Shown: positions 8,770 through 63,949 of the stretch, one piece after another
How positions within the stretch are numbered: the stretch's first letter is position 1
Layout of the letters: every line of letters begins with the position of its first letter
Origin: Siphonodentalium dalli
Taxonomy: Eukaryota > Mollusca > Scaphopoda > Gadilida > Siphonodentaliidae
Length of the DNA: 64,000 nt
NCBI GenBank assembly: GCA_032622095.1
Contig: CP136061.1
Span: 24,058,991-24,122,990 of the forward strand
Direction: 5' to 3'
Position numbers and translations under genes: made by a program
The notes under the pieces: model-generated
What the model was told of the DNA's origin: nothing
Databases searched by the model: none
What the model saw: only the letters and a program-made list of their open reading frames with translations

Positions 8770-8805
8770 CAATTCAAGTTAAATATACCAATTTAACTTG
8801 AATTG
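8770..8805. repeat. First copy of the unit's perfect 36-nt hairpin
   Basis: CAATTCAAGTTAAAT, then a 6-base loop ATACCA, then ATTTAACTTGAATTG: a perfect 15-bp stem. The same hairpin occurs once in every 538-bp unit, exactly where the short sub-unit joins the next long one. In single monomers further left only the first arm (CCAATTCAAGTTAAA) is present. The hairpin therefore appeared with the fusion that made the 538-bp unit. Confidence 0.9.
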
Positions 8806-9039
8806 TCATGGGTGCTGTGGGTGTTGGGCTGTCTCCATACCCTTAAAACCCACTAAGGAGCCCAAACTTTTGCAAATCTTCTTATACTGATGCAGATATT
8901 TCCAAAAACAATAGGAGACCTAGAAGTATATACCATTACAGGACCCAATTCCAGTTAAATATACCAATTTAACCATTAAAAAAAACAAATATCCCCCCTG
9001 AATAGAGCCCAAAATCCCATTCAGGTGCCCAAATCATCT

Positions 9040-12000
9040 TTTCCCATTGCCTCTATATATTCTAGAGTGAAATGTGGAATCATTTACAGAATGGGTATAG
9101 TCTGAGAGATGGCTGACTCAGAAATATGTTTTCATAGGCACGGCTGCTGTATGGTTTTATCATGGGTGCTGTGGTGTTGGGCTGTCTCAATACCCTTAAA
9201 ACCCACTGAGGAGCCCAAACTTTGTGCAAACCATTTGCATAGATGCATAGCTATCCACAAACAACAAAAGTGTTGGAAGTAGATACATATAATGGGTCAT
9301 ATGGCCCAATTCAAGTTAAATATACCAATTTAACTTGAATTGTCATGGGTGCTGGGCTGTCTCCATACCCTTAAAACACACTAAGGAGCCCAAACTTTTG
9401 CATATCTTCTTATAATGATGCAGATCTTTCCAAAAACACTAGGAGACCTAGAAGTATATACCTATAATGGGTCACAGGACCCAATTCCAGTTAAATATAC
9501 CAATTTAACCATTAAAAAAAACAAATATTCCTCCCTGACCAGAGCCCAAAATGCCATTCAGGTGCCCAAATCATCTTTTCCCATTGCCTCTATATATTCT
9601 AAAGTGAAATGTGGAATCATTTTCAGAATGGGTATAGTCTGAGAGATGGCTGACTCAGAAATATGTTTTCATAGGCACGGGTGCTGTATGGTTTTATCAT
9701 GGGTGCTGTGGGTGTTGGGCTGTTTCCATACCCTTAAAACCCACCGAGGAGCCCAAACTTTGTGCAAACTATTTGCATAGATGCATACCTATCCACAAAC
9801 AACAAAAGTGCTGGAAGTAGATACATATAATGGGTCATATGGCCCAATTCAAGTTAAATATACCAATTTAACTTGAATTGTCATGGGTGCTGGGCTGTCT
9901 CCATACCCTTAAAACCCACTAAGGAGCCCAAACTTTTGCATATCTTCTTATAATGATGCAGATCTTTCCAAAAACACTAGGAGACCTAGAAGTATATACC
10001 TATAATGGGCCACAGGACCCAATTCCAGTTAAATATACCAATTTAACCATTAAAAAAAAAATTATATTCCCCCCTGACCAGAGCCCAAAATGCCATTCAG
10101 GTGCCCAAATCATCTTTTCCCATTGCCTCTATATATTCTAAAGTGAAATGTGGAATCATTTTCAGAATGGGTATAGTCTGAGAGATGGCTGACTCAGAAA
10201 TATGTTTTCATAGGCACTGGTGCTGTATGGTTTTATCATGGGTGCTGTGGGTGTTGGGCTGTTTCCATACCCTTAAAACCCACCGAGGAGCCCAAACTTT
10301 GTGCAATCTATTTGCATAGATGCATACCTATCCACAAACAACAAAAGTGATGGAAGTAGATACATATAATGGGTCATATGGCCCAATTCAAGTTAAATAT
10401 ACCAATTTAACTTGAATTGTCATGGGTGCTGGGCTGTCTCCATACCCTTAAAACCCACTAAGGAGCCCAAACTTTTGCATATCTTCTTATAATGATGCAG
10501 ATCTTTCCAAAAACACTAGGAGACCTAGAAGTATATACCTATAATGGGTCACAGGACCCAATTCCAGTTAAATATACCAATTTAACCATTAAAAAAACCC
10601 AATATTCCCCCCTGACCAGAGCCCAAAATGCCATTCAGGTGCCCAAATCATCTTTTCCCATTGCCTCTATATATTCTAAAGTGAAATGTGGAATCATTTT
10701 CAGAATGGGTATAGTCTGAGAGATGGCTGACTCAGAAATATGTTTTCATAGGCACGGGTGCTGTATGGTTTTATCATGGGTGCTGTGGGTGTTGGGCTGT
10801 TTCCATACCCTTAAAACCCACCGAGGAGCCCAAACTTTGTGCAAACTATTTGCATAGATGCATACCTATCCACAAACAACAAAAGTGCTGGAAGTAGATA
10901 CATATAATGGGTCATATGGCCCAATTCAAGTTAAATATACCAATTTAACTTGAATTGTCATGGGTGCTGGGCTGTCTCCATACCCTTAAAACCCACTAAG
11001 GAGCCCAAACTTTTGCATATCTTCTTATAATGATGCAGATCTTTCCAAAAACACTAGGAGACCTAGAAGTATATACCTATAATGGGTCACAGGACCCAAT
11101 TCCAGTTAAATATACCAATTTAACCATTAAAAAAAACAAATATTCCCCCCTGACCAGAGCCCAAAATGCCATTCAGGTGCCCAAATCATCTTTTCCCATT
11201 GCCTCTATATATTCTAGAGTGAAATGTGGAATCATTTACAGAATGGGTATAGTCTGAGAGATGGCTGACTCAGAAATATGTTTTCATAGGCACGGCTGCT
11301 GTATGGTTTTATCATGGGTGCTGTGGTGTTGGGCTGTCTCAATACCCTTAAAACCCACTGAGGAGCCCAAACTTTGTGCAAACCATTTGCATAGATGCAT
11401 AGCTATCCACAAACAACAAAAGTGTTGGAAGTAGATACATATAATGGGTCATATGGCCCAATTCAAGTTAAATATACCAATTTAACTTGAATTGTCATGG
11501 GTGCTGGGCTGTCTCCATACCCTTAAAACACACTAAGGAGCCCAAACTTTTGCATATCTTCTTATAATGATGCAGATCTTTCCAAAAACACTAGGAGACC
11601 TAGAAGTATATACCTATAATGGGTCACAGGACCCAATTCCAGTTAAATATACCAATTTAACCATTAAAAAAAACAAATATTCCTCCCTGACCAGAGCCCA
11701 AAATGCCATTCAGGTGCCCAAATCATCTTTTCCCATTGCCTCTATATATTCTAAAGTGAAATGTGGAATCATTTTCAGAATGGGTATAGTCTGAGAGATG
11801 GCTGACTCAGAAATATGTTTTCATAGGCACGGGTGCTGTATGGTTTTATCATGGGTGCTGTGGGTGTTGGGCTGTTTCCATACCCTTAAAACCCACCGAG
11901 GAGCCCAAACTTTGTGCAAACTATTTGCATAGATGCATACCTATCCACAAACAACAAAAGTGCTGGAAGTAGATACATATAATGGGTCATATGGCCCAAT

Positions 12001-13343
12001 TCAAGTTAAATATACCAATTTAACTTGAATTGTCATGGGTGCTGGGCTGTCTCCATACCCTTAAAACCCACTAAGGAGCCCAAACTTTTGCATATCTTCT
12101 TATAATGATGCAGATCTTTCCAAAAACACTAGGAGACCTAGAAGTATATACCTATAATGGGCCACAGGACCCAATTCCAGTTAAATATACCAATTTAACC
12201 ATTAAAAAAAAAATTATATTCCCCCCTGACCAGAGCCCAAAATGCCATTCAGGTGCCCAAATCATCTTTTCCCATTGCCTCTATATATTCTAAAGTGAAA
12301 TGTGGAATCATTTTCAGAATGGGTATAGTCTGAGAGATGGCTGACTCAGAAATATGTTTTCATAGGCACTGGTGCTGTATGGTTTTATCATGGGTGCTGT
12401 GGGTGTTGGGCTGTTTCCATACCCTTAAAACCCACCGAGGAGCCCAAACTTTGTGCAATCTATTTGCATAGATGCATACCTATCCACAAACAACAAAAGT
12501 GATGGAAGTAGATACATATAATGGGTCATATGGCCCAATTCAAGTTAAATATACCAATTTAACTTGAATTGTCACGGGTGCTGGGCTGTCTCCATACCCT
12601 TAAAACCCACTAAGGAGCCCAAACTTTTGCATATCTTCTTATAATGATGCAGATCTTTCCAAAAACACTAGGAGACCTAGAAGTATATACCTATAATGGG
12701 TCACAGGACCCAATTCCAGTTAAATATACCAATTTAACCATTAAAAAAACCAAATATTCCCCCCTGACCAGAGCCCAAAATGCCATTCAGGTGCCCAAAT
12801 CATCTTTTCCCATTGCCTCTATATATTCTAAAGTGAAATGTGGAATCATTTTCAGAATGGGTATAGTCTGAGAGATGGCTGACTCAGAAATATGTTTTCA
12901 TAGGCACGGGTGCTGTATGGTTTTATCATGGGTGCTGTGGGTGTTGGGCTGTTTCCATACCCTTAAAACCCACCGAGGAGCCCAAACTTTGTGCAAACTA
13001 TTTGCATAGATGCATACCTATCCACAAACAACAAAAGTGCTGGAAGTAGATACATATAATGGGTCATATGGCCCAATTCAAGTTAAATATACCAATTTAA
13101 CTTGAATTGTCATGGGTGCTGGGCTGTCTCCATACCCTTAAAACCCACTAAGGAGCCCAAACTTTTGCATATCTTCTTATAATGATGCAGATCTTTCCAA
13201 AAACACTAGGAGACCTAGAAGTATATACCTATAATGGGTCACAGGACCCAATTCCAGTTAAATATACCAATTTAACCATTAAAAAAAACAAATATTCCCC
13301 CCTGACCAGAGCCCAAAATGCCATTCAGGTGCCCAAATCATCT
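9040..13343 (+). repeat. Four-unit (~2,152-bp) higher-order duplication inside the satellite
   Basis: Rare variants recur 2,152 bp apart. TTCTAGAGTGAAATG with CATTTACAGAATGG and CACGGCTGCTG occur at 9060-9150 and again at 11210-11300. TTCCTCCCTGACC occurs at about 9528 and 11680, AAAACACACTAAGG at 9372 and 11524, and GTGATGGAAG at about 10348 and 12498. This shows a tandem duplication of a four-unit block. Further right, shared variants (CCATTGAAAAAA at 14355 and 18662; CAAACGTTTGCA at 16392 and 21777) indicate offsets of 8 and 10 units. Confidence 0.85.
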
Positions 13344-16300
13344 TTTCCCATTGCCTCTATATATTCTAAAGTGAAATGTGGAATCATTTTCAGAATGGGT
13401 ATAGTCTGAGAGATGGCTGACTCAGAAATATGTTTTCATAGGCACGGGTGCTGTATGGTTTTATCATGGGTGCTGTGGGTGTTGGGCTGTTTCCATACCC
13501 TTAAAACCCACCGAGGAGCCCAAACTTTGTGCAAACTATTTGCATAGATGCATACCTATCCACAAACAACAAAAGTGCTGGAAGTAGATACATATAATGG
13601 GTCATATGGCCCAATTCAAGTTAAATATACCAATTTAACTTGAATTGTCATGGGTGCTGGGCTGTCTCCATACCCTTAAAACCCACTAAGGAGCCCAAAC
13701 TTTTGCATATCTTCTTATAATGATGCAGATCTTTCCAAAAACACTAGGAGACCTAGAAGTATATACCTATAATGGGCCACAGGACCCAATTCCAGTTAAA
13801 TATACCAATTTAACCATTAAAAAAAAAAATTATATCCCCCCCTGACCAGAGCCCAAAATGCCATTCAGGTGCCCAAATCATCTTTTCCCATTGCCTCTAT
13901 ATATTCTAAAGTGAAATGTGGAATCATTTTCAGAATGGGTATAGTCTGAGAGATGGCTGACTCAGAAATATGTTTTCATAGGCACTGGTGCTGTATGGTT
14001 TTATCATGGGTGCTGTGGGTGTTGGGCTGTTTCCATACCCTTAAAACCCACCGAGGAGCCCAAACTTTGTGCAATCTATTTGCATAGATGCATACCTATC
14101 CACAAACAACAAAAGTGCTGGAAGTAGATACATATAATGGGTCATATGGCCCAATTCAAGTTAAATATACCAATTTAACTTGAATTGTCATGGGTGCTGG
14201 GCTGTCTCCATACCCTTAAAACCCACTAAGGAGCCCAAACTTTTGCATATCTTCTTATAATGATGCAGATCTTTCCAAAAACACTAGGAGACCTGGAAGT
14301 ATATACCTATAATGGGTCACAGGACCCAATTCCAGTTAAATATACCAATTTAACCATTGAAAAAAACAAATATTCCCCCCTGACCAGAGCCCAAAATGCC
14401 ATTCAGGTGCCCAAATCATCTTTTCCCATTGCCTCTATATATTCTAAAGTGAAATGTGGAATCATTTTCAGAATGGGTATAGTCTGAGAGATGGCTGACT
14501 CAGAAATATGTTTTCATAGGCACGGGTGCTGTATGGTTTTATCATGGGTGCTGTGGGTGTTGGGCTGTTTCCATACCCTTAAAACCCACCGAGGAGCCCA
14601 AACTTTGTGCAAACTATTTGCATAGATGCATACCTATCCACAAACAACAAAAGTGCTGGAAGTAGATACATATAATGGGTCATATGGCCCAATTCAAGTT
14701 AAATATACCAATTTAACTTGAATTGTCATGGGTGCTGGGCTGTCTCCATACCCTTAAAACCCACTAAGGAGCCCAAACTTTTGCATATCTTCTTATAATG
14801 ATGCAGATCTTTCCAAAAACACTAGGAGACCTAGAAGTATATACCTATAATGGGCCACAGGACCCAATTCCAGTTAAATATACCAATTTAACCATTAAAA
14901 AAAAAAATTATATTCCCCCCTGACCAGAGCCCAAAATGCCATTCAGGTGCCCAAATCATCTTTTCCCATTGCCTCTATATATTCTAAAGTGAAATGTGGA
15001 ATCATTTTCAGAATGGGTATAGTCTGAGAGATGGCTGACTCAGAAATATGTTTTCATAGGCACTGGTGCTGTATGGTTTTATCATGGGTGCTGTGGGTGT
15101 TGGGCTGTTTCCATACCCTTAAAACCCACCGAGGAGCCCAAACTTTGTGCAATCTATTTGCATAGATGCATACCTATCCACAAACAACAAAAGTGCTGGA
15201 AGTAGATACATATAATGGGTCATATGGCCCAATTCAAGTTAAATATACCAATTTAACTTGAATTGTCATGGGTGCTGGGCTGTCTCCATACCCTTAAAAC
15301 CCACTAAGGAGCCCAAACTTTTGCATATCTTCTTATAATGATGCAGATCTTTCCAAAAACACTAGGAGACCTAGAAGTATATACCTATAATGGGTCACAG
15401 GACCCAATTCCAGTTAAATATACCAATTTAACCATTAAAAAAACCAAATATTCCCCCCTGACCAGAGCCCAAAATGCCATTCAGGTGCCCAAATCATCTT
15501 TTCCCATTGCCTCTATATATTCTAAAGTGAAATGTGGAATCATTTTCAGAATGGGTATAGTCTGAGAGATGGCTGACTCAGAAATATGTTTTCATAGGCA
15601 CGGGTGCTGTATGGTTTTATCATGGGTGCTGTGGGTGTTGGGCTGTTTCCATACCCTTAAAACCCACCGAGGAGCCCAAACTTTGTGCAAACTATTTGCA
15701 TAGATGCATACCTATCCACAAACAACAAAAGTGCTGGAAGTAGATACATATAATGGGTCATATGGCCCAATTCAAGTTAAATATACCAATTTAACTTGAA
15801 TTGTCATGGGTGCTGGGCTGTCTCCATACCCTTAAAACCCACTAAGGAGCCCAAACTTTTGCATATCTTCTTATAATGATGCAGATCTTTCCAAAAACAC
15901 TAGGAGACCTAGAAGTATATACCTATAATGGGCCACAGGACCCAATTCCAGTTAAATATACCAATTTAACCATTAAAAAAACCAAATATTCCCCCCTGAC
16001 CAGAGCCCAAAATGCCATTCAGGTGCCCAAATCATCTTTTCCCATTGCCTCTATATATTCTAAAGTGAAATGTGGAATCATTTTCAGAATGGGTATAGTC
16101 TGAGAGATGGCTGACTCAGAAATATGTTTTCATAGGCACGGGTGCTGTATGGTTTTATCATGGGTGCTGTGGGTGTTGGGCTGTTTCCATACCCTTAAAA
16201 CCCACCGAGGAGCCCAAACTTTGTGCAAATTATTTGCATAGATGCATACCTATCCACAAACAACAAAAGTGCTGGAAGTAGATACATATAATGGGTCATA

Positions 16301-19300
16301 TGGCCCAATTCAAGTTAAATATACCAATTTAACTTGAATTGTCATGGGTGCTGGGCTGTCTCCATACCCTTAAAACCCACTAAGGAGCCCAAACGTTTGC
16401 ATATCTTCTTATAATGATGCAGATCTTTCCAAAAACACTAGGAGACCTAGAAGTATATACCTATAATGGGTCACAGGACCCAATTCCAGTTAAATATACC
16501 AATTTAACCATTAAAAAAAACAAATATTCCCCCCTGACCAGAGCCCAAAATGCCATTCAGGTGCCCAAATCATCTTTTCCCATTGCCTCTATATATTCTA
16601 AAGTGAAATGTGGAATCATTTTCAGAATGGGTATAGTCTGAGAGATGGCTGACTCAGAAATATGTTTTCATAGGCACGGGTGCTGTATGGTTTTATCATG
16701 GGTGCTGTGGGTGTTGGGCTGTTTCCATACCCTTAAAACCCACCGAGGAGCCCAAACTTTGTGCAAACTATTTGCATAGATGCATACCTATCCACAAACA
16801 ACAAAAGTGCTGGAAGTAGATACATATAATGGGTCATATGGCCCAATTCAAGTTAAATATACCAATTTAACTTGAATTGTCATGGGTGCTGGGCTGTCTC
16901 CATACCCTTAAAACCCACTAAGGAGCCCAAACTTTTGCATATCTTCTTATAATGATGCAGATCTTTCCAAAAACACTAGGAGACCTAGAAGTATATACCT
17001 ATAATGGGCCACAGGACCCAATTCCAGTTAAATATACCAATTTAACCATTAAAAAAAACAAATATTCCCCCCTGACCAGAGCCCAAAATGCCATTCAGGT
17101 GCCCAAATCATCTTTTCCCATTGCCTCTATATATTCTAAAGTGAAATGTGGAATCATTTTCAGAATGGGTATAGTCTGAGAGATGGCTGACTCAGAAATA
17201 TGTTTTCATAGGCACGGGTGCTGTATGGTTTTATCATGGGTGCTGTGGGTGTTGGGCTGTTTCCATACCCTTAAAACCCACCGAGGAGCCCAAACTTTGT
17301 GCAAACTATTTGCATAGATGCATACCTATCCACAAACAACAAAAGTGCTGGAAGTAGATACATATAATGGGTCATATGGCCCAATTCAAGTTAAATATAC
17401 CAATTTAACTTGAATTGTCATGGGTGCTGGGCTGTCTCCATACCCTTAAAACCCACTAAGGAGCCCAAACTTTTGCATATCTTCTTATAATGATGCAGAT
17501 CTTTCCAAAAACACTAGGAGACCTAGAAGTATATACCTATAATGGGTCACAGGACCCAATTCCAGTTAAATATACCAATTTAACCATTAAAAAAAACAAA
17601 TATTCCCCCCTGACCAGAGCCCAAAATGCCATTCAGGTGCCCAAATCATCTTTTCCCATTGCCTCTATATATTCTAAAGTGAAATGTGGAATCATTTTCA
17701 GAATGGGTATAGTCTGAGAGATGGCTGACTCAGAAATATGTTTTCATAGGCACGGGTGCTGTATGGTTTTATCATGGGTGCTGTGGGTGTTGGGCTGTTT
17801 CCATACCCTTAAAACCCACCGAGGAGCCCAAACTTTGTGCAAACTATTTGCATAGATGCATACCTATCCACAAACAACAAAAGTGCTGGAAGTAGATACA
17901 TATAATGGGTCATATGGCCCAATTCAAGTTAAATATACCAATTTAACTTGAATTGTCATGGGTGCTGGGCTGTCTCCATACCCTTAAAACCCACTAAGGA
18001 GCCCAAACTTTTGCATATCTTCTTATAATGATGCAGATCTTTCCAAAAACACTAGGAGACCTAGAAGTATATACCTATAATGGGCCACAGGACCCAATTC
18101 CAGTTAAATATACCAATTTAACCATTAAAAAAAAAAATTATATTCCCCCCTGACCAGAGCCCAAAATGCCATTCAGGTGCCCAAATCATCTTTTCCCATT
18201 GCCTCTATATATTCTAAAGTGAAATGTGGAATCATTTTCAGAATGGGTATAGTCTGAGAGATGGCTGACTCAGAAATATGTTTTCATAGGCACTGGTGCT
18301 GTATGGTTTTATCATGGGTGCTGTGGGTGTTGGGCTGTTTCCATACCCTTAAAACCCACCGAGGAGCCCAAACTTTGTGCAATCTATTTGCATAGATGCA
18401 TACCTATCCACAAACAACAAAAGTGCTGGAAGTAGATACATATAATGGGTCATATGGCCCAATTCAAGTTAAATATACCAATTTAACTTGAATTGTCATG
18501 GGTGCTGGGCTGTCTCCATACCCTTAAAACCCACTAAGGAGCCCAAACTTTTGCATATCTTCTTATAATGATGCAGATCTTTCCAAAAACACTAGGAGAC
18601 CTAGAAGTATATACCTATAATGGGTCACAGGACCCAATTCCAGTTAAATATACCAATTTAACCATTGAAAAAACAAATATTCCCCCCTGACCAGAGCCCA
18701 AAATGCCATTCAGGTGCCCAAATCATCTTTTCCCATTGCCTCTATATATTCTAAAGTGAAATGTGGAATCATTTTCAGAATGGGTATAGTCTGAGAGATG
18801 GCTGACTCAGAAATATGTTTTCATAGGCACGGGTGCTGTATGGTTTTATCATGGGTGCTGTGGGTGTTGGGCTGTTTCCATACCCTTAAAACCCACCGAG
18901 GAGCCCAAACTTTGTGCAAACTATTTGCATAGATGCATACCTATCCACAAACAACAAAAGTGCTGGAAGTAGATACATATAATGGGTCATATGGCCCAAT
19001 TCAAGTTAAATATACCAATTTAACTTGAATTGTCATGGGTGCTGGGCTGTCTCCATACCCTTAAAACCCACTAAGGAGCCCAAACTTTTGCATATCTTCT
19101 TATAATGATGCAGATCTTTCCAAAAACACTAGGAGACCTAGAAGTATATACCTATAATGGGCCACAGGACCCAATTCCAGTTAAATATACCAATTTAACC
19201 ATTAAAAAAAAAAATTATATTCCCCCCTGACCAGAGCCCAAAATGCCATTCAGGTGCCCAAATCATCTTTTCCCATTGCCTCTATATATTCTAAAGTGAA

Positions 19301-22300
19301 ATGTGGAATCATTTTCAGAATGGGTATAGTCTGAGAGATGGCTGACTCAGAAATATGTTTTCATAGGCACTGGTGCTGTATGGTTTTATCATGGGTGCTG
19401 TGGGTGTTGGGCTGTTTCCATACCCTTAAAACCCACCGAGGAGCCCAAACTTTGTGCAATCTATTTGCATAGATGCATACCTATCCACAAACAACAAAAG
19501 TGCTGGAAGTAGATACATATAATGGGTCATATGGCCCAATTCAAGTTAAATATACCAATTTAACTTGAATTGTCATGGGTGCTGGGCTGTCTCCATACCC
19601 TTAAAACCCACTAAGGAGCCCAAACTTTTGCATATCTTCTTATAATGATGCAGATCTTTCCAAAAACACTAGGAGACCTAGAAGTATATACCTATAATGG
19701 GTCACAGGACCCAATTCCAGTTAAATATACCAATTTAACCATTAAAAAAACCAAATATTCCCCCCTGACCAGAGCCCAAAATGCCATTCAGGTGCCCAAA
19801 TCATCTTTTCCCATTGCCTCTATATATTCTAAAGTGAAATGTGGAATCATTTTCAGAATGGGTATAGTCTGAGAGATGGCTGACTCAGAAATATGTTTTC
19901 ATAGGCACGGGTGCTGTATGGTTTTATCATGGGTGCTGTGGGTGTTGGGCTGTTTCCATACCCTTAAAACCCACCGAGGAGCCCAAACTTTGTGCAAACT
20001 ATTTGCATAGATGCATACCTATCCACAAACAACAAAAGTGCTGGAAGTAGATACATATAATGGGTCATATGGCCCAATTCAAGTTAAATATACCAATTTA
20101 ACTTGAATTGTCATGGGTGCTGGGCTGTCTCCATACCCTTAAAACCCACTAAGGAGCCCAAACTTTTGCATATCTTCTTATAATGATGCAGATCTTTCCA
20201 AAAACACTAGGAGACCTAGAAGTATATACCTATAATGGGCCACAGGACCCAATTCCAGTTAAATATACCAATTTAACCATTAAAAAAAAAAATTATATTC
20301 CCCCCTGACCAGAGCCCAAAATGCCATTCAGGTGCCCAAATCATCTTTTCCCATTGCCTCTATATATTCTAAAGTGAAATGTGGAATCATTTTCAGAATG
20401 GGTATAGTCTGAGAGATGGCTGACTCAGAAATATGTTTTCATAGGCACTGGTGCTGTATGGTTTTATCATGGGTGCTGTGGGTGTTGGGCTGTTTCCATA
20501 CCCTTAAAACCCACCGAGGAGCCCAAACTTTGTGCAATCTATTTGCATAGATGCATACCTATCCACAAACAACAAAAGTGCTGGAAGTAGATACATATAA
20601 TGGGTCATATGGCCCAATTCAAGTTAAATATACCAATTTAACTTGAATTGTCATGGGTGCTGGGCTGTCTCCATACCCTTAAAACCCACTAAGGAGCCCA
20701 AACTTTTGCATATCTTCTTATAATGATGCAGATCTTTCCAAAAACACTAGGAGACCTAGAAGTATATACCTATAATGGGTCACAGGACCCAATTCCAGTT
20801 AAATATACCAATTTAACCATTAAAAAAACCAAATATTCCCCCCTGACCAGAGCCCAAAATGCCATTCAGGTGCCCAAATCATCTTTTCCCATTGCCTCTA
20901 TATATTCTAAAGTGAAATGTGGAATCATTTTCAGAATGGGTATAGTCTGAGAGATGGCTGACTCAGAAATATGTTTTCATAGGCACGGGTGCTGTATGGT
21001 TTTATCATGGGTGCTGTGGGTGTTGGGCTGTTTCCATACCCTTAAAACCCACCGAGGAGCCCAAACTTTGTGCAAACTATTTGCATAGATGCATACCTAT
21101 CCACAAACAACAAAAGTGCTGGAAGTAGATACATATAATGGGTCATATGGCCCAATTCAAGTTAAATATACCAATTTAACTTGAATTGTCATGGGTGCTG
21201 GGCTGTCTCCATACCCTTAAAACCCACTAAGGAGCCCAAACTTTTGCATATCTTCTTATAATGATGCAGATCTTTCCAAAAACACTAGGAGACCTAGAAG
21301 TATATACCTATAATGGGCCACAGGACCCAATTCCAGTTAAATATACCAATTTAACCATTAAAAAAACCAAATATTCCCCCCTGACCAGAGCCCAAAATGC
21401 CATTCAGGTGCCCAAATCATCTTTTCCCATTGCCTCTATATATTCTAAAGTGAAATGTGGAATCATTTTCAGAATGGGTATAGTCTGAGAGATGGCTGAC
21501 TCAGAAATATGTTTTCATAGGCACGGGTGCTGTATGGTTTTATCATGGGTGCTGTGGGTGTTGGGCTGTTTCCATACCCTTAAAACCCACCGAGGAGCCC
21601 AAACTTTGTGCAAACTATTTGCATAGATGCATACCTATCCACAAACAACAAAAGTGCTGGAAGTAGATACATATAATGGGTCATATGGCCCAATTCAAGT
21701 TAAATATACCAATTTAACTTGAATTGTCATGGGTGCTGGGCTGTCTCCATACCCTTAAAACCCACTAAGGAGCCCAAACGTTTGCATATCTTCTTATAAT
21801 GATGCAGATCTTTCCAAAAACACTAGGAGACCTAGAAGTATATACCTATAATGGGTCACAGGACCCAATTCCAGTTAAATATACCAATTTAACCATTAAA
21901 AAAAAACAAATATTCCCCCCTGACCAGAGCCCAAAATGCCATTCAGGTGCCCAAATCATCTTTTCCCATTGCCTCTATATATTCTAAAGTGAAATGTGGA
22001 ATCATTTTCAGAATGGGTATAGTCTGAGAGATGGCTGACTCAGAAATATGTTTTCATAGGCACGGGTGCTGTATGGTTTTATCATGGGTGCTGTGGGTGT
22101 TGGGCTGTTTCCATACCCTTAAAACCCACCGAGGAGCCCAAACTTTGTGCAAACTATTTGCATAGATGCATACCTATCCACAAACAACAAAAGTGCTGGA
22201 AGTAGATACATATAATGGGTCATATGGCCCAATTCAAGTTAAATATACCAATTTAACTTGAATTGTCATGGGTGCTGGGCTGTCTCCATACCCTTAAAAC

Positions 22301-22747
22301 CCACTAAGGAGCCCAAACTTTTGCATATCTTCTTATAATGATGCAGATCTTTCCAAAAACACTAGGAGACCTAGAAGTATATACCTATAATGGGTCACAG
22401 GACCCAATTCCAGTTAAATATACCAATTTAACCATTAAAAAAAACAAATATTCCCCCCTGACCAGAGCCCAAAATGCCATTCAGGTGCCCAAATCATCTT
22501 TTCCCATTGCCTCTATATATTCTAAAGTGAAATGTGGAATCATTTTCAGAATGGGTATAGTCTGAGAGATGGCTGACTCAGAAATATGTTTTCATAGGCA
22601 CGGGTGCTGTATGGTTTTATCATGGGTGCTGTGGGTGTTGGGCTGTTTCCATACCCTTAAAACCCACCGAGGAGCCCAAACTTTGTGCAAACTATTTGCA
22701 TAGATGCATACCTATCCACAAACAACAAAAGTGCTGGAAGTAGATAC

Positions 22748-52060: not shown

Positions 52061-54459
52061 AAAGGGCATAATACAGCTGGTTTTGTTCTCATTTGGTGTG
52101 GAAAAATATTGAGAACAACATATCCAAAATCCACTAAATTCCGAATTGGGGAAACTTTGATATCCAATATGGCGTCCAGCATGGTTGTGTATATTACACC
52201 AGTTCTCGAAATAAGTCATTATACGTTATGTTGCGGCATAGGTATTACGCAGCTATACATGTCTGTGTGGAATTAGAATACGGGGGCGAACAGAGTGACA
52301 CGGACAGAAAATAATACAATCGCGGCCACGAAATGTCTGTCAAAATGGCCGCAACTCCAAGACATGCCACGACGAAAGCAACATATTGGATAACAACCTA
52401 GAAGTAAAAATACGTATTGCTAATTGTATACAAGTCTGTTGTTAAGTATTTTTAAAGGTACACCTATCATTGAACAAATCCATCTGAAGGATTTATTGGT
52501 CACTGCAGCGCAAGTCAAACACAATGATATACGTCTTTCTGCTTAAGCACAACTGCTTGAATTTATTTTAAAATAAACACCTATGCGTACCTTGCAATGG
52601 GATAAGACTTTTGGTTTGGGGCATCAATGTGTTTAAAAATCCTGCCTAAAATTTAGTTTAGTTTTCAGTTTATTGTCGTTGAAACGCCCTTAGATATAAT
52701 ACAATACTGCCCATATGTCTAAGTCACGCGTTATGACATTGAAGCAATGAACACTCATAGTAGTGAGCTAGTGTCCTCATGTAACTAAGACCTTAAAGCC
52801 TAGATCAGTGTGTGAATGGAATAAGAGCGAGTAGCTGTCTCGCACATTAATGTGACTATCAATGGCTAGAAAATAACTGTCATCAGTGCATCAAGCTAAT
52901 CAATGAATTATGTGCATGTTTATCAACTCAGATGATATGTTGATCTCACAACACCTAAAGTATCCAAGTATGGCATAGTGACTGCTTGTCATTTAGTATA
53001 ACATAAGTTGGTTGCTCCAGTAGATTAACAAAAGTAGTGTGGAATAATGCTAGATAATGGGCTGGTTGACAGACTAATAAGGAAATAGTAAGAACTGAGA
53101 GAATTGTATTTTACTGCACAATGACCAGGTATCAGCAATTTATAAAATTTCCAATTTCCAATTGCAGCCTTGCAAACACTGTGTAGGAACTGTTACATCG
53201 GATGTCGTTCTATCGCCGGAATTGTGATGGTTCTTGACTGATTTGTTACGGTTCCTTATGATTAAAAATAATCATTTTCGGGACAAAATCACGCATATTT
53301 TTAGATATCTTGAATGTATTATACTTTCCTGAATGAACAGAGGCTGCAAAAGTGCCGTATTGTCGAAGCCTGAACTCGAGATTACAATTAACTCGGAATT
53401 AGCGAGTTAACGCGTAAATATCAACATGTTATCACTGAAAATCAAGCCAGGTAAACGCAATTTCTTACTCGAAAATCCCACCAAAGGGATATTTACGCAT
53501 GTTTGTCGCCCATACATGAACATATCTTCATACCTTACACTAGTTTGGTTGGAAATTTCACACCAACAATATGTTGAAATTGTTCCCTCAGTTTGATTTT
53601 ACAACAATGTGTTTGTTTAAAGTGTAATTGTCCGCCGCGTTCATTTAAAATAATACTAGCAATATTTAATTCCTATCTAATCATCGGGGCCGACTTCTCT
53701 CAGCTCGACTTCATATGAGGTCGACTTCAAATGGTCCAGACTTCACTTCTACTCTTTTGACTAATAGTCACTTGATTTTGTAAAACTTCCATTGGCTGAT
53801 TGGGTTACTTTTAAAGGTTTATAGTATTGGTACCCGTATTTACATTCCGGAATATCACTGAGGATGCGTGACTACTCATGCGCAAGACCAGTTGCCCCGG
53901 TGTGATATTGCATGTTCGGTGCGACTGCTATAGTAAGTCAAAGGCGGTGACCAAATAATTTTTGCTTTCACTTCATCCAGTTTTTAATATTACAAAAGAT
54001 AGCCTTTAATAGTATAAAACAATTATTCCCTCTTACAGGCGAGTAGATTGATTGGTGATTGGTTGTAATCGGATATCTCTTAACAGGAATCTGAGTGGCG
54101 TGGCTTCACTGTCTTAATGCTTAGAAGTTAGAACAAACCTTGAGTGATTGCCGGTCAAATTATCCTGAACCACAGAACAAGTGCGATAAAGAAGTAACGA
54201 GTGCTAGCACCTAACCTATATAATCAGCATCCAGCAAGCGGATGCCCAACATAAACTTCATAAATTGCGTAATAGGACGTGGTTGTTTGAGTAATGTAAT
54301 TGGTCGCGAATAGATCTGCGTTGTGTTAATACGCACCTTAAAAAACGCGGCGATTTATCGCCAGCGCGTGTGCAATATGAATAGACCCTAAGTCTGAGAG
54401 TTATCCCACATGCATGCTGGCTGTGAAAGAACGATCGGTCTATTTTAGTCGGACCTTGC
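52061..54459. other. Unassigned 2.4-kb stretch
   Basis: No gene was recognised on either strand; frames are short and motif-free. A small cluster of CGACTTC words (53691-53750) is the only local repetition seen. Confidence 0.4.
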
Positions 54460-55591: not shown

Positions 55592-58500
55592 TTATTTAAG
55601 AGCACAGTCGGGACATCCTTTGTTTTTACATCGTACATTTTCTGGGTAATTTCTCAGCATGGCTATCTGTAAGCGCTTCTTCAATGTGTGCCTGCTTTGG
55701 CAAGATGTATAATCTTTTTCCATATTGTTCCATGTTGTGGGGAAGGCGTGGTGGGGTAGTTTTCCTGACCAGTCAGTTCTGGGTAGTTCTAATAGTACGG
55801 GATTCGGGTGTCTAGGTGTTGATTTTGCTCGTTTGTTGTACATCATTCCAAAAGACGCGGGCAGGCGATTATAACACCAGTCATGCATGAAAATTGACGA
55901 ATTGAGAGTGTGTAAGTCATATATTTTCAAGATTTTCTCTTTTTTAAAGAGTGGATCTGTGTGACTCCTGTACTTCTTATTGCATATTATACGCAATGCT
56001 CGTTTTTGTAATAGGAATACTTTCTTGACTTCCGGGACATGACCCCATATTTGGATACCATAAACTAGGTGGCTTTGAATCAGTGCATAGTACAATGTTT
56101 TCAATGCTTTCCTTGGGAAAAAGTTTTTCACCTTATTGATGCAATATATTGCATGTGATATTTTGGAGCAGAGTATGGATATGTGCTTTTTGAATGTCAA
56201 GTTTTCACCAATGTGGATACCTAGAAATCGTGTCGATGATTCACGCCCAAGATTCCATATCCGGTTCAATTGAATGTTATTTAGCTTTATTGTCAAAGTA
56301 TTCCATTTGTTGTCATTGTTTTGGGGGTGTAAAAGCATATAATTGCTTTTATTAATATTAATTGACAGTTTATTACAGCAGCACCAATCGGATACATTGG
56401 CTAATTCATTGTTGACATAACTTTGTACTAGTTCGCCATCTTTACCGCTTGTGAATAGTGTAGTGTCATCTGCATACGATAAAATGTCCATTGTTGTAGA
56501 ATTTACCATATCATTCACGTATATTAAAAAAATAATCGGCCCAAGAATTTAGCCTTGGGGGACTCCGCAGGAAGTATTCATAAGGTGAGAAGTACTCCCA
56601 CTATATTCAACGTATTGCCTCCTCTCATTCAAGTAACTATGGAACCATGACATTGCTACACCCCTGATGCCATAGTGGTCAAGTTTCGATATCAGTATGT
56701 CGTGGTCGATCGTATCGAATGCTTTAGATAAATCAATAAATACAGCTAAGGTGGAATCCCGTGTCGGTTTATCATTATTTTTAACGAGATGGTCTAAAAG
56801 GTGCATAATCGGATGAAATGTTGAGTGATTTGGTCTAAATCCATATTGGTGTTTATACAAAATTTCATGTTCATTTAGAAAATCTACTAATCGTTTTTGC
56901 ATAATTTTTTCAAGTAGTTTAGAGAACGATGGCAGGATACTGATTGGGCGATAGTTTGTTATTTCCTTATAGTTATTTATTTTAGGAATGGGGACTACTT
57001 TGGAAATTTTCATTTTCATTGGGAATATTCCCTGTTCAAACGATAGATTAAATATATGCTTAAGTGGTGGAGCTATTATGAAGATACTCTCTTTCATAAG
57101 TGCGGTCGATATGCCGTTGTAATCTTTGCTCATTTTCCCTTTCATAGTATAACATGTCAATACTATTTCCTGTATCGATGTAGGTTCGATTTCAAATTCG
57201 TTTGTTCGCCTATTTCGAAGATAATCAGTGAAATTTGCGTCATTTTCAGTGTGTATATAGTTGCTGGTGTTTCGACCGATTGTTGAAAAGTAGTCATTGA
57301 ATTTTTCTGCTATTATGTTTGGGTCAGATAGCTCTGCATCGTTATCATTAAATGTCTGAGGGTAGTTGCATGATTTTAGATTTTTATTGATGGCATTTTA
57401 AAGAATTTTCCATTTGTTTTTTATATCATTCTTATTTTTTTCTAGACTATCGCAATAATAATTATTTTTACATTTCCTTATTAGTTTATTGTATAATTGA
57501 CGATAATTTAAATAGGCGAGTTTATTTGTTTCTGATGGTGCCTTCAGTTTATTAGAGTATAATTCTTGCTTAGTAATAGAGGATTTGATTAGTCCAGGTG
57601 TCATCCATGGTTCGCGCTTTATATATTTTTTTGGTACATTTCGTGTTATTAGAGGAAAAGCTAGATCATGCGCGTTCATATATATGTCCAAAAACAATTA
57701 ATATGCCTTATTAGGGGAGTTACAACTGAGAACTGAGTCGAATTTACATGATTTTAACATGTTTTTGAAAATGTTGACATTATTTGGGGTGTAGTTCCTG
57801 TACGTGGCTTGTTTATGAGGGGGTTTTATGGGTTTGTGTTTGTTTGATTCGGAGAGGAATATACCGAAATGATCGGAGATGTCGCAAGTAATTATCCCTG
57901 TTTGGTGACCACCTTGTACTTTGTTTGTATAGATGTGATCAATTAGGGTAGCAGAGTGCTCAGTCATTCTTGTAGGTTTCGTTATCATGGGCATAAATCC
58001 TCTAGTGAAGACATTGTTTATGAAATCGTTAGTTTTTTGATGCGTGTCGAAATTTAAGAGGTTGATGTTGAGGTCTCCTATTATGTAAGACTTGGCATTG
58101 TTCAATTTTTCTAATATATTATCGAATTTCAACATAAATTTGTCCAAGTCGGCCTTTGGTGCTGTGTTCGGTCTATAAATACATCCTATTATATAATTAT
58201 CGTTCGCTCCTCGGTGTATTTCTATAAATAATGTTTCTATTACGTGTGGTATAAATATTGTCAAATCTGGTCTGGGTTTATATTGAAGATTTTCCTTAAT
58301 ATAAATACCAACACCACCTCTGGCATCGTCACCATCAGGTCGAGATTTGAATTCTAAGGGGTGATATCCTGGAAGTGAAAAATCTGAAGAACTATGCACT
58401 TTGAATATTTCTGTTAGGGCTATAACATCGAACAAATTTTCTTCTGTTTTCAAATTACAAAGTAGGTTTTTTAGATCTCCATAATTTGCGTTAAGGCTTC

Positions 58501-58801
58501 TGCAGTTTAGTCCGAAGATAGAGAATTTTATATTATTTGAGAGCATTTTTTTACCCTGTGTAGGCGAGAAATATTGGCATGTATTTTGATTCCAAAGTTG
58601 GATGTTATCGGGATCGAATTCATCTCCTTCTATTTGAGACCATTTTGCCGCGAAATCTTGTGCACGCGTATCCCTAACCTCACTCAAAGTTATGCTATTT
58701 GCAGACATAGTTGAAATTTCTAAATTGTTGTAATGTACGCCCTGGTATCGCCATATGTTTATGTTGTCGTGCGGAAGATCGATACGTATGCGTGGAAACA
58801 A
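55592..58801 (-). pseudogene. LINE ORF2: APE endonuclease plus reverse transcriptase, three in-frame TAA
   Basis: One frame of about 1,070 codons, with no frameshift. The endonuclease part (58801-57698) shows FSIFGLNCRSLN, VIALTEIF (the family normally has TET), GGVGIYIKENL, YIIGDLNINLL, SATLIDHIYTN and CDISDHFGIF. The linker includes REPWMTPGLIKSS. The RT part shows ITNYRPISILPSFSKLLEK, YGFRPNHST, motif A VFIDLSKAFDTIDHD, SCGVPQG, then ILGPIIFLIYVNDM and motif C SYADDTTLF. The C-terminus has CINKVKNFFPRKALKTLYYA, LQKRALRIICN and a knuckle CKNKGCPDC. TAA codons lie at about 57695-57697 (after NKAY), 57395-57397 (after KWKIL) and 56546-56548 (between VPQG and ILGP, where the family has serine). 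The upstream stop is TGA at about 58811, and the annotated 5' codon is TTG, not ATG. Confidence 0.9.
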
Positions 58802-58930
58802 ATACGAATATCATTTTACCAAATATTAATTCAAGTTTTGGTGGAATTATATTAATATGAGGTTTATCATTTTGCACTATGCAAGGGAGTTCATGTAACT
58901 GATAACATGATCTCGAAGAACCTCGATCGT

Positions 58931-59040: not shown

Positions 59041-59480
59041 CTGGGCAGGTTCTCCACATAGTACCTATATGTTTGGTTCTCTGAAGTACCAAAGTGCTAG
59101 GTACTATGCATAGTACCTAAATAATTCAGAGTATCTGTCTTGATATTTGGTACTTCAGATAATATAATGGGCGTGTCAAGAAAGCGTGTGTGTGTATTTA
59201 TTGGCACTTCATATTGTGTGCGTCATGGTATCTGTGAAATAAAAACGTGGTTGGTATTATATGCATAATGCCCGGATAGGTACTCCACATAACCTAAATA
59301 TAGGTACTCCAGACAACCTAAATATATCGTTACTCCAGAGAACCTATATATTGGTACTCAAGAGAACCTATATATAGGTACTCCAGAATACCTAAATATA
59401 TAGGTACTCCAGAGAACCTATATGTAGGTACTCCCCCTGGGACAAAGCTTAGTACCTATATAGGTACTCTAGAGTACCTA
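59041..59480. repeat. GGTACTCCAGAGAACCTATA minisatellite upstream of the lectin gene
   Basis: From 59275 to 59480 the unit GGTACTCCAGAGAACCTATA plus TATA recurs about seven times at 24-30 bp spacing. An outlying group at 59055-59160 has the same words in both orientations (TAGTACCTATATG, GGTACTATGCATAGTACC). It ends ~185 bp before the start codon of the gene that follows, so it may lie in or near its promoter. Confidence 0.8.
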
Positions 59481-59665: not shown

Positions 59666-59980
59666 ATGCAACGCAAAGTGTTCTCACGGAAAGTGTCTCT
59701 GATTGCGTTTATGTCAGTGCTCATCTTCTGGGAACTTACGTTTGCTGAAATGTGCGAGCCGCCGACTTTGCTGCAGAAAGCTGTGGTTTCATCTCTGACC
59801 ATACAACTCAGCACCAGAAGCATTAACATTGCCAGATGTAGGCGGATGTGCGCGTATACCAAGGCATGCGTCAAGGTAGCATACAGTGCAAATAGTACGA
59901 CATGTCACCTCCTCCGAACCGGTAACGGCGAGGATCTGGATACTGAACCATCGATGGAATTCGCTAATAAAACTATTCTG
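59666..59980 (+). CDS. Secreted PAN/EGF/mucin/C-type-lectin protein, exon 1: signal peptide and PAN-like domain
   Basis: The exon is 105 codons from the ATG at 59666. Residues 1-9 are basic and residues 10-27 hydrophobic (VSLIAFMSVLIFWELTFA), a good signal peptide with likely cleavage after TFA. The mature part has cysteines at 30, 58, 62, 68 and 80 in the pattern CRRMCAYTKACVKVAYSANS followed by TTCHLL, typical of PAN/apple modules, which bind proteins or sugars outside the cell. NST and NKT are possible N-glycosylation sites. The exon ends at CTG before GTGAGT (strong donor at 59981), phase 0. The ATG lies 7 codons before the hydrophobic core and no better upstream start is seen. The frame beyond the donor stops 27 bases later. 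It is the first exon of a gene continuing at 61094. The family assignment to PAN is by cysteine pattern only. Confidence 0.8.
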
Positions 59981-61093
59981 GTGAGTAAGCATGTGCGCGT
60001 ACTTTAACCCTTCCATGACTAGAGCTTCCTGTATTTTTACGAAAACCCTGTGCCAATGCATTCCCATAGGGAGTCTCGCATATATAAGAGAAAATATTGG
60101 CCTTTAATATTTAACTTGACATTGTAAGCCAGTACATTCTCTTATGTAAGCGAGGCTCCCTATGTGAGACTCGCATAGTCAAGAGAATACACTGGCGCTG
60201 GATATTTAATGCTGCACCAGCGCAGCTCCCCTCATGATGGGGTTAGTTCTAAACTTAGAAAGTAACCTTACTTCACTAAATGGATTCTACCATCAATTAT
60301 GAAATTATGCATTGGAACTGTTAATTATTCATTTGGATGGGTGTAAAATATAAGACGACATACAGACGAAAAGATAGTAAGTACAACATGTAATGCAGAA
60401 GTGTTCTTTTTAACTTGTGAGAAAATTCAGGTTCAAATAATAAGTTAAATGGCCGTTTCGTGAACTAATAATCTGAACATTTCCTGAGGGAACTACTCGC
60501 ATAATTCAATGCATATACAGTCATCCGCAAACTTCTTACACAACGATGTTTGCATTGGGCAATCGGTTATTATAACCCCAATTTTGGTGTAATGTCTTAC
60601 TGTAATATGACGATCTTCTGTTATATATCTCCAATTCTCCGAAAACCATTAATCCCAACCCTTCCTTTCTGAACTGTACCCCCTTCCTCACTTATTGTGG
60701 ACGTGCAGCCAAAGAGGAGAATACTTTCATATTGCATATATGTGCCATTTGTATAGTATGTTTTTCGTTTGGATTTGGAAATAAAGATATGTTTTCGCTA
60801 ACTATCTGTGCCCAAACACTCATCATTTGTGTATTTACTGTACAATGTTTCATCGGGAAGATATGCCATACACGTACAAACTGTCTTATTTTTCATTGTA
60901 CGGACTAAAGGAATATTACAATGTTTTTGTTTCGGGCCCAGTGGCTCCAGTCTCAGACATGCCACGAGACACCGTGTTTTGACAAAGCGATCTGCTCATG
61001 ATATAGATATACACGGCCCGCCAGTTTTGCGCTGATTGTCATATGTTTGACTAACGCCAGTTGTTAGATTCAAATCGGTATTAAATGTTTCAG
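59981..61093 (+). other. Intron 1 (1,113 bp)
   Basis: Donor GTGAGT at 59981 and acceptor TTAAATGTTTCAG ending at 61093. It contains a fold-back sequence at 60065-60163. No additional exon with a suitable frame was recognised. A 75-codon frame at 60808-61035 has no motif. Confidence 0.65.
60065..60163. repeat. ~99-bp imperfect hairpin in intron 1
   Basis: CATAGGGAGTCTCGCATATA then AGAGAAAATATTGGC pairs with GCCAGTACATTCTCTTATGT then AAGCGAGGCTCCCTATG. A partial third copy (GTGAGACTCGCATAGTCAAG, AGAATACACTGGC) follows at 60163-60195. It resembles a small foldback element. Confidence 0.65.
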
Positions 61094-61481
61094 GACGAAT
61101 CCCACCCATGCCACATGACTCCATGTGGTAACAACGCGATCTGCGCACCTACCGAGTTGCCACAACCCAGATACCGATGCATTCCTTTCAAAAGTGTGGC
61201 AACTACAACGACATCAACGACAACGACAACAACGACAACAACAACAACAACGACGACCAAGACAACAGCAAAATTGACACCAACAACGTCAACAACAACA
61301 ACGACAACAACGACAACAACATGGACGACAACAACGACAAGAACAACAACAAGAACAACGACAACAACACCGACGACAACAACGACAACAACAACAACGT
61401 CAACAACAAAACAAACGACAACAACACGGACAACAACAACAACAACGACGACGACGACGACAACAACAACACATCCAGATG
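61094..61481 (+). CDS. Same gene, exon 2: EGF-like segment and threonine-rich mucin-like tract
   Basis: The exon begins after TTTCAG in phase 0 and reads DESHPCHMTPCGNNAICAPT then ELPQPRYRCIP: four cysteines spaced like the first part of an EGF module (C-x4-C-x5-C, then YRC). The usual last two cysteines are absent, so it is a shortened EGF-like segment. From about residue 35 it becomes a ~90-residue tract almost wholly threonine with occasional S, P, K, R and W, a likely O-glycosylated spacer. The DNA under it is an ACAACA/ACAACG microsatellite (61201-61470) whose other frames would give poly-N/D. The cysteine segment fixes the threonine frame. It ends at HPD plus one base before GTAAAT (donor at 61482), phase 1. 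Confidence 0.8.
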
Positions 61482-63751
61482 GTAAATAATTTGTTAAAGA
61501 CGTACATGTATTGTGCGTTTATTTTAATCAACCCCAATTGATGCGCCAGTACATAGGTACTATGCCGTCTGGACTCTAGAAGGGTGTTAAAATACACTAA
61601 TATCGCCGATAATTGTAACCAAATTAATCTTACCTTTCAGGAAGATAACACATCTGTAATACGCAATATTGTAGAAAGCAGAGTTAGCGTAATAAATCGA
61701 AAGGTCCCACAACCACGAAAAATGTGTATTAAAAAAACGAAATAATCACTCTTCGCCATATATATATGTTTACATGTATATATATCCAGTAAGTAATTCG
61801 GACGAATTTATTGCGGCTTAACGGACGGAATAGATTCCATCAATCGAGATTCATTACAAATAATTCATAGGTGTAATCATGATTTTGTTCGTCGGTTGAA
61901 AATGTAAATATAAACATATAATAATAACTAGATTGAGCTAGTTTTTGTTCTATTCGCATCCAGTATTACCCACGTAGAATGATTCAAACAACTTTAAGTC
62001 ACATAACATGATACCTATTGTCGGACTGGGTGTATACATGCAGATACATACTCAAGATAAGTTGTAACTGAGATATCGAATATATCTCGTCAATTAATGA
62101 GTTTCCCGTAGAAATCAGAATTAGCCGTAGTAAACAGAGTTACCCGTAGTCAAAAATCGAAAGGTAATGTGCGCTAAAAGGCGAAATAATCACTCTTCGC
62201 CTAATTGACGAATGAATAATCATTTCCAAGTGCACCTGGATATTCGGACTGATATATTGGGTTCAGGGACCTGGATAGATGGTATATTTTGCGGCGTCCA
62301 CCTTTGAATTTCATACTGCAACTCTCTCCCCCCCCCCCCCATTTTGAACGAGACCCAAATTCCACAGATCATGGATACAGTTGTAGAAATAATACTCCAT
62401 CAGTTTGAAACCTGGGAACTTTTTGATGTTGCGGCAGGGACGTTTATAACATTTAAACACAGTGCAGGTAATATATGTCTTAGTTAAAATATATGATCCT
62501 TATCAAATTTGGTACAAGCGATTATTGTGACACAATATATAGAACCATGCATCGACCCGTTGGCAATGATCATGGATTGAATAATATTTAAAATATCACT
62601 TTTTCAGGTGTCATGAACTTCTGTAAAGCGGATTTTTATTCAAAAGGGCTGTTCATATATCCATCCTATCATATCTGAAGATCATTATATAGAGGAGCAT
62701 TAGTTATTCTTGATTCGTGAAATATAATGATCATTTTCGTATAAAAAGGCAACAACTTGTACATAATTTTATATATTTGAGAATTTTCATGTCATACCTG
62801 TTGATCAATGAAAAATTGGGCTGAGATGAGGTCTGGGCCATGGATTCATAACCAAGTAACCAATTCCAATTTATTTATCCCTGTTTGTGTGGACCACATG
62901 GCATATTATTATATGTTTTCATTGAGCTGGACTATTTGTGACTGCTTTGTTCTGCATTATAGTGTATGGGGTGTGATGTTATATTATGAATTTAAAAATT
63001 AACGCAACATTATGATACAAATGAAGCATCCCCCAATAGAGCCAATGTAATAAGCTATTTGGTGATTGGAGTGTTTGTGAAATTATTAATTATTCTAGTA
63101 GTTCTTGGTACCAAAAGGGACAAAATAAAATAATATTTTCAACCTGTCAAATGTATTAAAATGTATTGTTATTGACGTCTCCTAATATTTGCTCAGATAC
63201 TATATACAATGAAGATGATGATTTGATTTGATTTGAACACATAAACTACATATGATTTGCACCCTTGGGTCAGAATTCCAACTGGAACCTGAAACAGCCC
63301 TACATGTAATGGCTGGAAATTCAAACTTGACAGCCCTACATATAACGGCTGTAAATTAAAACCTGACAGCCCTACATGTAATGTTGGAAATTAAAACCTG
63401 ACAGCCCTACATGTAATGGTGGAAATTAAAACCTGACAGCCCTACATGTAATGTTGGAAATTAAAACCTGACAACCCTACATGTAATGTTGGAAATATAT
63501 GTAACATGATAGCCCTATATGAACCCTGACAGTCCTATATGTAATGACTGGGTAGTTGGCGGCAAGAACGAAAATATTCAACATTTTATCTAAAAACAAT
63601 AAACTGACATGTTAAATACTGGTTTGAAATTTAAACTACCAGCACAATTTCAAATCACTTTTGGTATAACATTTCCAACTGATGTTGTGTCAGATGTATG
63701 TCTACGAATGTTTGTAACATATTTATCATATACATTTTCTGTTTGCTTTAG
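61482..63751 (+). other. Intron 2 (2,270 bp)
   Basis: Donor GTAAAT at 61482 and acceptor TTTTCTGTTTGCTTTAG ending at 63751. It contains poly-C at 62327-62339 and a 35-bp minisatellite near the 3' end. No extra exon was recognised. A small additional phase 1-1 exon could have been missed. Confidence 0.6.
63291..63545 (+). repeat. ~35-bp minisatellite in intron 2
   Basis: The unit CCTGACAGCCCTACATGTAA followed by TGTTGGAAATTAAAA recurs about seven times, best preserved at 63360-63480 and worn at both ends. Each unit contains the TACATGTA word common elsewhere in this genome, showing one way the word is amplified. Confidence 0.85.
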
Positions 63752-63949
63752 ATTGCCCAGAATCCCTCGGATATTCGAATCATACTCTGGGCGGCCAGGA
63801 ATACTGTCTGAGGTACAGCTCCGCATATGTTACACGTCATATGGCACATGTTGACTGCTTTAATGACGGGGCGCACCTAATTCTTGTCAGAAGTAGACAG
63901 ATCCTCAACGATTTGGCGGGTTTCCTCGCGAAATCTGGCTACACGGGAG
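63752..63949 (+). CDS. Same gene, exon 3: start of a C-type lectin domain
   Basis: The acceptor TTTGCTTTAG is followed by 198 bases that begin and end in phase 1, fitting exon 2. The translation DCPESLGYSNHTLGGQEYCL, then RYSSAYVTRHMAHVDCFND and GAHLILVRSRQILNDLAGFL, has the hallmarks of a C-type lectin-like fold. It shows the opening CP, the C of the CY/CL position, the central C before NDGAHL, and the following amphipathic helix 2. NHT is a possible glycosylation site. The donor GTAAGAA is at 63950. The rest of the domain, including any calcium/sugar-binding EPN/QPD and WND motifs, lies beyond the window, so sugar binding cannot be judged. The joined CDS in view is 901 nt. Confidence 0.85.

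What the first reader, a model, noticed from the sequence alone, without database searches (positions are those of the whole stretch)
59666..63949. Secreted mosaic lectin: PAN-like, shortened EGF, ~90-residue Thr tract, C-type lectin
Seen: three exons with sound splice sites and matching phases (0/0, 1/1), a clear signal peptide, cysteine patterns for PAN and EGF modules, an extreme threonine tract and a C-type lectin start. Established: C-type lectins with mucin-like stalks act in invertebrate mucosal recognition. Inference: the combination is a secreted or mucus-associated recognition protein. The exact architecture is unfamiliar to me.
Basis: partly seen in the sequence, partly recalled or inferred. 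Interest (0 to 1): 0.7.

Follow-up and report, generated by a model that had tools for sequence, protein, structure and literature searches.

The report
Modular PAN-EGF lectin gene family
This is a convincing animal gene for a secreted, lectin-like recognition protein, and it belongs to a large family in the same genome in which one constant front end is joined to different recognition ends, much as in snail immune lectins.

Summary
The three exons are as described; a fourth, 12 kb past exon 3 (window-scale 76014-76225), ends the C-type lectin domain and the 370-aa protein. Pfam supports the lectin and, narrowly, PAN; the EGF module has 4 of 6 cysteines and stays below cut-off. A model of the PAN exon matches apple folds.

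The gene is one of a family. Of 29 close exon-1 copies (itself included), 29 have the EGF exon downstream and 16 a lectin exon found so far. Four of 4 distant EGF exons read lack the Thr stalk and show a donor of the same phase. Distant heads lead to other ends: of 89, 13 fibrinogen-like, 5 WSC, 5 C-type lectin, none with two classes; flipped-strand control for the first two 0 and 0. Lectin exons are more diverged than heads, and trees disagree; evidence for positive selection is suggestive only. WND is absent in 15 of 15 exon-4 relatives parsed.

Best reading: a modular secreted recognition family that works like snail FREP/CREP/GREP but with a PAN-EGF head. Function is inferred; expression untested.

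The parts
59666..59980 (+). Exon 1: signal sequence (about residues 1-27, by eye) plus 5-Cys PAN/apple-like module; phase-0 donor
   Evidence: 28 further copies at 61-95% identity
61094..61481 (+). Exon 2: 4-Cys shortened EGF-like module, then 90-residue Thr stalk; phase-1 donor
61200..61471 (+). ACN trinucleotide array that encodes most of the Thr stalk
63752..63949 (+). [quoted passage not shown] The second half and stop are exon 4, outside the window at window-scale 76014-76225 (G000:C1:24135004-24135215)

Best explanation
The gene encodes a secreted 370-aa protein made of a constant head (PAN/apple plus a half EGF), a Thr-rich and probably O-glycosylated stalk, and a C-type lectin-like recognition end. 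It is one member of a lineage-expanded modular family in which the same kind of head, followed by a phase-1 intron, is joined to C-type lectin, fibrinogen-like or WSC ends. Most likely mechanism: the head oligomerises or docks the protein (an odd, conserved cysteine count could allow a disulphide-linked dimer), the stalk sets reach, and the variable end binds foreign or variable ligands in mucus or body fluid. Shown here from genomic DNA: gene structure, family, shared head, different ends behind one head family, lectin ends more diverged than heads. Inferred: splicing and secretion, oligomerisation, glycosylation, ligand and immune role.
For: Gene model; no hydrophobic stretch after the signal (highest 19-residue mean 0.77). 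Heads and EGF exons pair in 29 of 29 close and 62 of 89 distant copies. Distant heads lead to a fibrinogen-like exon in 13, WSC in 5, C-type lectin in 5 of 89, never two classes; for the first two classes the flipped-strand control gave 0 and 0 and random places means of 0.17 and 0.17. Pfam names the fibrinogen and WSC exons; the best acceptors of the two read are phase 1, matching phase-1 EGF donors. Exon 3 has the larger dN in 63 of 66 gene pairs and the larger dN/dS in 15 of 15 pairs of the first six genes and in 31 of 37 pairs with unsaturated dS. In a subgroup of 4 genes exon 3 has mean dN/dS 2.12 (bootstrap share with dN<=dS 0.036) against 0.60 for exon 1. Exon 4 of the query and its nearest copy differ by 6 nonsynonymous and 0 synonymous changes in 69 codons. 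Grouping the query with g27641, g24225 and g27947, as in the exon-1 tree (support 87/90, not starred), is rejected by exon 3 (AU p 2e-42).
Against: No expression, protein or binding data. Over all 66 pairs the median dN/dS is about equal (0.29 exon 1, 0.27 exon 3), because exon-3 dS is high or saturated (13 pairs at the cap): the ends are more diverged, which alone does not show selection. In the four-gene group that holds the query exon 3 is at 0.57, with no sign of dN above dS. Single-pair Fisher tests in the dN/dS 2.12 subgroup are not significant (p 0.11-0.48), and that subgroup was picked after seeing its values. Exon 1 does not firmly reject the exon-3 clade (p 0.09), and the clades tested were named after seeing the data. 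66 of 89 distant heads and 13 of 29 close ones have no assigned end; three assigned ends lie 40-58 kb from their head. Only 20 of 88 lectin exon-3 copies have a listed head within 60 kb upstream, so this lectin type also occurs apart from the head or the heads were missed.
Confidence: 0.6

Rival explanations
1. Reproductive or self recognition: the family diversifies through gamete or individual recognition rather than immunity.
For: Diverged ends on a constant head fit gamete proteins as well. The rotifer lectin survey notes that a C-type lectin serves as a mate recognition pheromone (PMC8878817, section 2.2, read).
Against: 118 listed heads with three kinds of end is more than I recall for gamete recognition (recalled, not tested).
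Confidence: 0.15
2. Structural or adhesive mucus protein, or biomineral matrix protein: the Thr stalk makes it mucin-like and the lectin end ties it to glycans of the matrix.
For: Thr stalks vary from 42-43 to over 238 residues between paralogs; usual sugar-site residues are changed.
Against: Four of 4 distant EGF exons read lack the stalk, so the stalk is not the core of the family; lectin ends are more diverged than the heads.
Confidence: 0.12
3. Inflated count: many copies are alternative haplotypes or pseudogenes and only a few functional genes exist.
For: Two arrays on C1 (about 23.9-24.4 and 27.6-28.1 Mb) pair up at 93-99% DNA identity; exon 1 of g24287 and g28020 and exon 3 of g24225 and g27947 show no difference; one of the 30 close EGF exons has an in-frame TAG (C1:230443497).
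Against: The flank at window 52300-54300 has no listed copy near C1 27.6 Mb, though only 40 of 8893 candidates were scored. The 29 close heads lie on C1 (14), C9 (12), C8 (2) and C5 (1), 29 of 29 without a stop inside.
Confidence: 0.08

Closest known systems
Snail variable immunoglobulin and lectin family (VIgL: FREP, CREP, GREP)
   Same: One kind of N-terminal head joined to different lectin ends (fibrinogen-like, C-type lectin, galectin); plasma lectins (abstract, summary and introduction passages of PMC5433772)
   Different: Head there is one or two Ig folds; here PAN plus a 4-Cys EGF module and no Ig match. WSC ends appear here; galectin ends were not looked for.
Rotifer EGF plus C-type lectin proteins and a Thr/Ser-rich bdelloid C-type lectin
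   Same: EGF-like domain before a C-type lectin domain; separately, a long Thr/Ser-rich region before a C-type lectin domain (PMC8878817 section 2.2, read)
   Different: That section names no PAN module and no shared head over several kinds of end; it says the EGF plus lectin combination had not been described before in Lophotrochozoa
Single C-type lectin domain proteins (Pfam PF00059)
   Same: Profile match over cut-off; six cysteines at the expected places (recalled) plus one extra
   Different: NPS in place of EPN/QPD and MAD in place of WND (motifs recalled)

Membership tests
C-type lectin-like domain (PF00059) | Profile match over the curated cut-off | tested here: met
   28.6 bits for the domain, 24.4 in the full protein, cut-off 22.6
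C-type lectin-like domain (PF00059) | Usual Ca-dependent sugar site: EPN/QPD plus WND (motifs recalled) | tested here: not met
   Query NPS and MAD. Of 17 exon-4-type loci held, 15 were parsed: WND in 0 of 15; QPD or QPN in 4 of 15, none of these four shown to have a PAN head. The five from PAN-headed genes read NPS, NPS, RPY, RPF, KPD. For contrast, 6 of 8 best lectin loci matched a pattern that itself asked for W-x-D, 4 of them WND; 2 did not match
PAN/apple domain (PF00024) | Profile match over the curated cut-off | tested here: inconclusive
   22.4 bits on residues 1-141 but 19.7 on the full protein, cut-off 21.4; a distant paralog scores 22.5
PAN/apple domain (PF00024) | Fold | tested here: met
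PAN/apple domain (PF00024) | Cysteine that ties C-terminus to N-terminus (recalled) | tested here: not met
   Exon 1 codes for five cysteines in the mature part, invariant in 23 of 23 aligned rows (18 close, 5 distant; L017 and L020 were not put in). A partner in exon 2 is not excluded
EGF domain (PF00008) | Profile match over cut-off | tested here: not met
   16.4 bits alone, cut-off 21.5
EGF domain (PF00008) | Six cysteines | tested here: not met
   Four cysteines in 9 of 9 close copies aligned and in 6 of 6 further exon-2 copies read, 4 distant and 2 from the edge of the close group; fold search only weakly EGF, best E 1.7
VIgL lectins (FREP/CREP/GREP) | N-terminal Ig fold | tested here: not met
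   No Ig family among Pfam matches of the N-terminal 141 aa up to E 10
VIgL lectins (FREP/CREP/GREP) | Same head on different lectin ends | tested here: met
   C-type lectin, fibrinogen-like and WSC ends behind one head family, by position and strand in the genome, not by transcripts
VIgL lectins (FREP/CREP/GREP) | Plasma protein with immune binding | not testable with these tools
   No transcripts or proteins of this animal at hand

The most novel reading that the evidence does not exclude
An undescribed, independently evolved counterpart of the snail VIgL system: a repertoire of over 100 secreted recognition proteins built by phase-1 exon exchange on a PAN-EGF head, with C-type lectin, fibrinogen-like and WSC ends, clade-specific growth of Thr stalks, and diversifying selection on ends that no longer use the usual sugar site.
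Probability: 0.35. Interest if true: 0.8.

Novelty: new variant of a known kind. Interest (0 to 1): 0.6.

Why it matters
Diversified immune lectins with a shared head and different ends are known from snails. A second design on a different head would show that modular, germline-diversified recognition arose more than once, and this genome offers concrete genes, exons and paralog pairs to test exon exchange, stalk growth and selection directly.

Tried and rejected
Phylum: not established. A hemocyanin model (PF14830, molluscan by recall) gave no match, but its control genomes do not ring either; a ferritin exon matched many ferritins without named organisms; a paper search by chromosome number and size did not help. 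I call it an animal only; a spiralian is a guess.

Whole-haplotype duplication of the C1 array: the upstream flank tested has no listed copy near 27.6 Mb (capped scoring), so a simple haplotig copy is unlikely but not excluded.

The EGF model gave only weak matches. By eye, among open frames of about 38-45 aa or more, 5 kb downstream of these heads showed no recognisable end: L075, L077, L078 of the close group; L087, L090, L092, L093, L094 of the distant group; for L087 and L090 the family lists place a fibrinogen-like and a WSC exon farther on. Exons between 63949 and 76014 were looked for only among open frames of 45 aa or more. A first impression that the usual sugar motifs are lost throughout was wrong in part: 4 of 15 exon-4 relatives keep QPD or QPN, though 0 of 15 keep WND.

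Papers: no PAN plus EGF plus C-type lectin family, and no one head with fibrinogen, WSC and lectin ends, showed in the titles and abstract starts listed. These listings showed only part of the papers found (for example 20 of 486, 15 of 54, 12 of 54), and only open papers are held. Of PMC10140915, PMC5433772 and PMC4581086 I saw passages only; of PMC8878817 passages and section 2.2.

Full report
Observation. The window lies at G000:C1:24058991-24122990 of an unnamed 2.23-Gb assembly in 9 contigs. The gene runs past the window: a 212-base exon at window-scale 76014-76225, with a pyrimidine-rich acceptor that fits the phase-1 end of exon 3, completes the lectin domain and stops. An earlier AG (exon from 75960) also keeps the frame and would add 18 residues. 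[quoted passage not shown] After the signal the most hydrophobic 19-residue stretch averages 0.77, so no membrane segment is expected.

Family. Exon 1 has 29 copies at 61-100% identity including itself, on C1, C5, C8 and C9, and 89 more with E up to 8e-4, at 28-50%. Exon 2 has 30 copies at 64% or more. Each of the 29 close exon-1 copies has an exon-2 copy downstream on its strand; randomly placed heads gave 0.12 of 70 on average. A listed lectin exon follows in 15 of 29, and a 16th was read in L076. The Thr stalk differs strongly among paralogs: 42-43, 58, 60, 81, 89 and 158 residues where the end was found, and over 238 where cut by the locus end; one (L024) seems to end after about 15 residues, but its border is unproven. 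In distant members the EGF exon shows a phase-1 GTGAGT donor six codons after its last cysteine, in 4 of 4 read. So the stalk most simply grew as an ACN repeat between the EGF module and an existing phase-1 splice site.

Other ends. Reading downstream of distant heads showed a fibrinogen-like exon (L089) and a split WSC domain (L088), named so by Pfam, the first WSC half below its cut-off and the second above. Cross-matching 89 distant heads with capped genome-wide lists gave fibrinogen-like ends in 13, WSC in 5, C-type lectin in 5 and none assigned in 66; no head had two classes. For the first two classes the flipped-strand count was 0 and 0 and the random mean 0.17 and 0.17; no such control was run for the lectin class. 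Three assigned ends lie 40-58 kb away and are less sure. The best acceptors of the two new ends read are phase 1, like the lectin exon. A further C-type lectin half follows one more distant head (L091). Conversely, only 20 of 88 lectin exon-3 copies have a listed head within 60 kb upstream.

Evolution. Across 12 genes with exon 1 and exon 3 in hand (66 pairs), exon 1 has median dS 0.23, dN 0.072 and dN/dS 0.29; exon 3 has median dS 1.22, dN 0.319 and dN/dS 0.27; exon 3 has the larger dN in 63 and the larger dS in 51. So the ends are older or exchanged as well as more changed. Where exon-3 dS is below 1.5 and both dS values exceed 0.02, exon 3 has the higher dN/dS in 31 of 37 pairs, and in 15 of 15 pairs of the first six genes; pairs are not independent. 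The query and g24225/g27947 have nearly the same head (dS 0.10-0.14) but exon 3 at dS 1.7; exon-3 data reject grouping them with g27641 (AU p 2e-42), though exon 1 does not firmly reject the exon-3 clade (p 0.09), and the clades were named after seeing the data. This points to exchange or homogenisation of the head relative to the ends. In a subgroup of four genes exon 3 shows dN/dS 2.12 with a bootstrap share of 0.036 at or below 1, chosen after the fact; single pairs are not significant. In the group that holds the query exon 3 is at 0.57 and exon 1 at 0.17. Between the query and its 98-99% identical copy, exon 4 has 6 nonsynonymous and no synonymous changes.

Comparison. The layout works like the snail VIgL lectins, in which FREPs, CREPs and GREPs share an Ig head and differ in the lectin end (PMC5433772, passages). 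It is not a member: the head here is PAN plus half EGF. The rotifer survey PMC8878817 (section 2.2 read) reports EGF plus C-type lectin as new for Lophotrochozoa and a Thr/Ser-rich region before a lectin in a bdelloid; that section names no PAN head. My open-literature listings showed no such family.

Limits. Gene models rest on genomic sequence alone. Most family lists are capped at 150 scored rows and are lower bounds. Copy number may include haplotype copies. The species, and hence the breadth of the family in other animals, is unknown.

Noticed in passing
window 8431-22738: Satellite array of about 538-bp units, 27 copies, 24 of them 97-100% alike, with two interleaved variants.
   Followed up: no
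window 55595-58810, minus strand: LINE-like remnant with endonuclease- and reverse-transcriptase-like frames (my reading by eye) broken into several pieces.
   Followed up: no
window 60912-61000: A degenerate second copy of the EGF exon with a stop lies just upstream of exon 2; similar stop-bearing extra copies sit beside exon 2 of several paralogs.
   Followed up: partly
window-scale about 64144-72000 (L009, L010): Intron 3 of the lectin gene holds a long tandem array seen as a repeating open-frame peptide.
   Followed up: no
window 59276-59434 and 63294-63496: Tandem repeats just upstream of exon 1 (24-bp unit) and in intron 2 (35-bp unit).
   Followed up: no
L078, C1:230443497: EGF exon match of one close paralog carries an in-frame TAG, so that copy may be a pseudogene.
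   Followed up: no
genome-wide: At least 150 fibrinogen-like, 150 WSC and 150 C-type lectin matches were scored in this genome, all three lists capped.
   Followed up: partly
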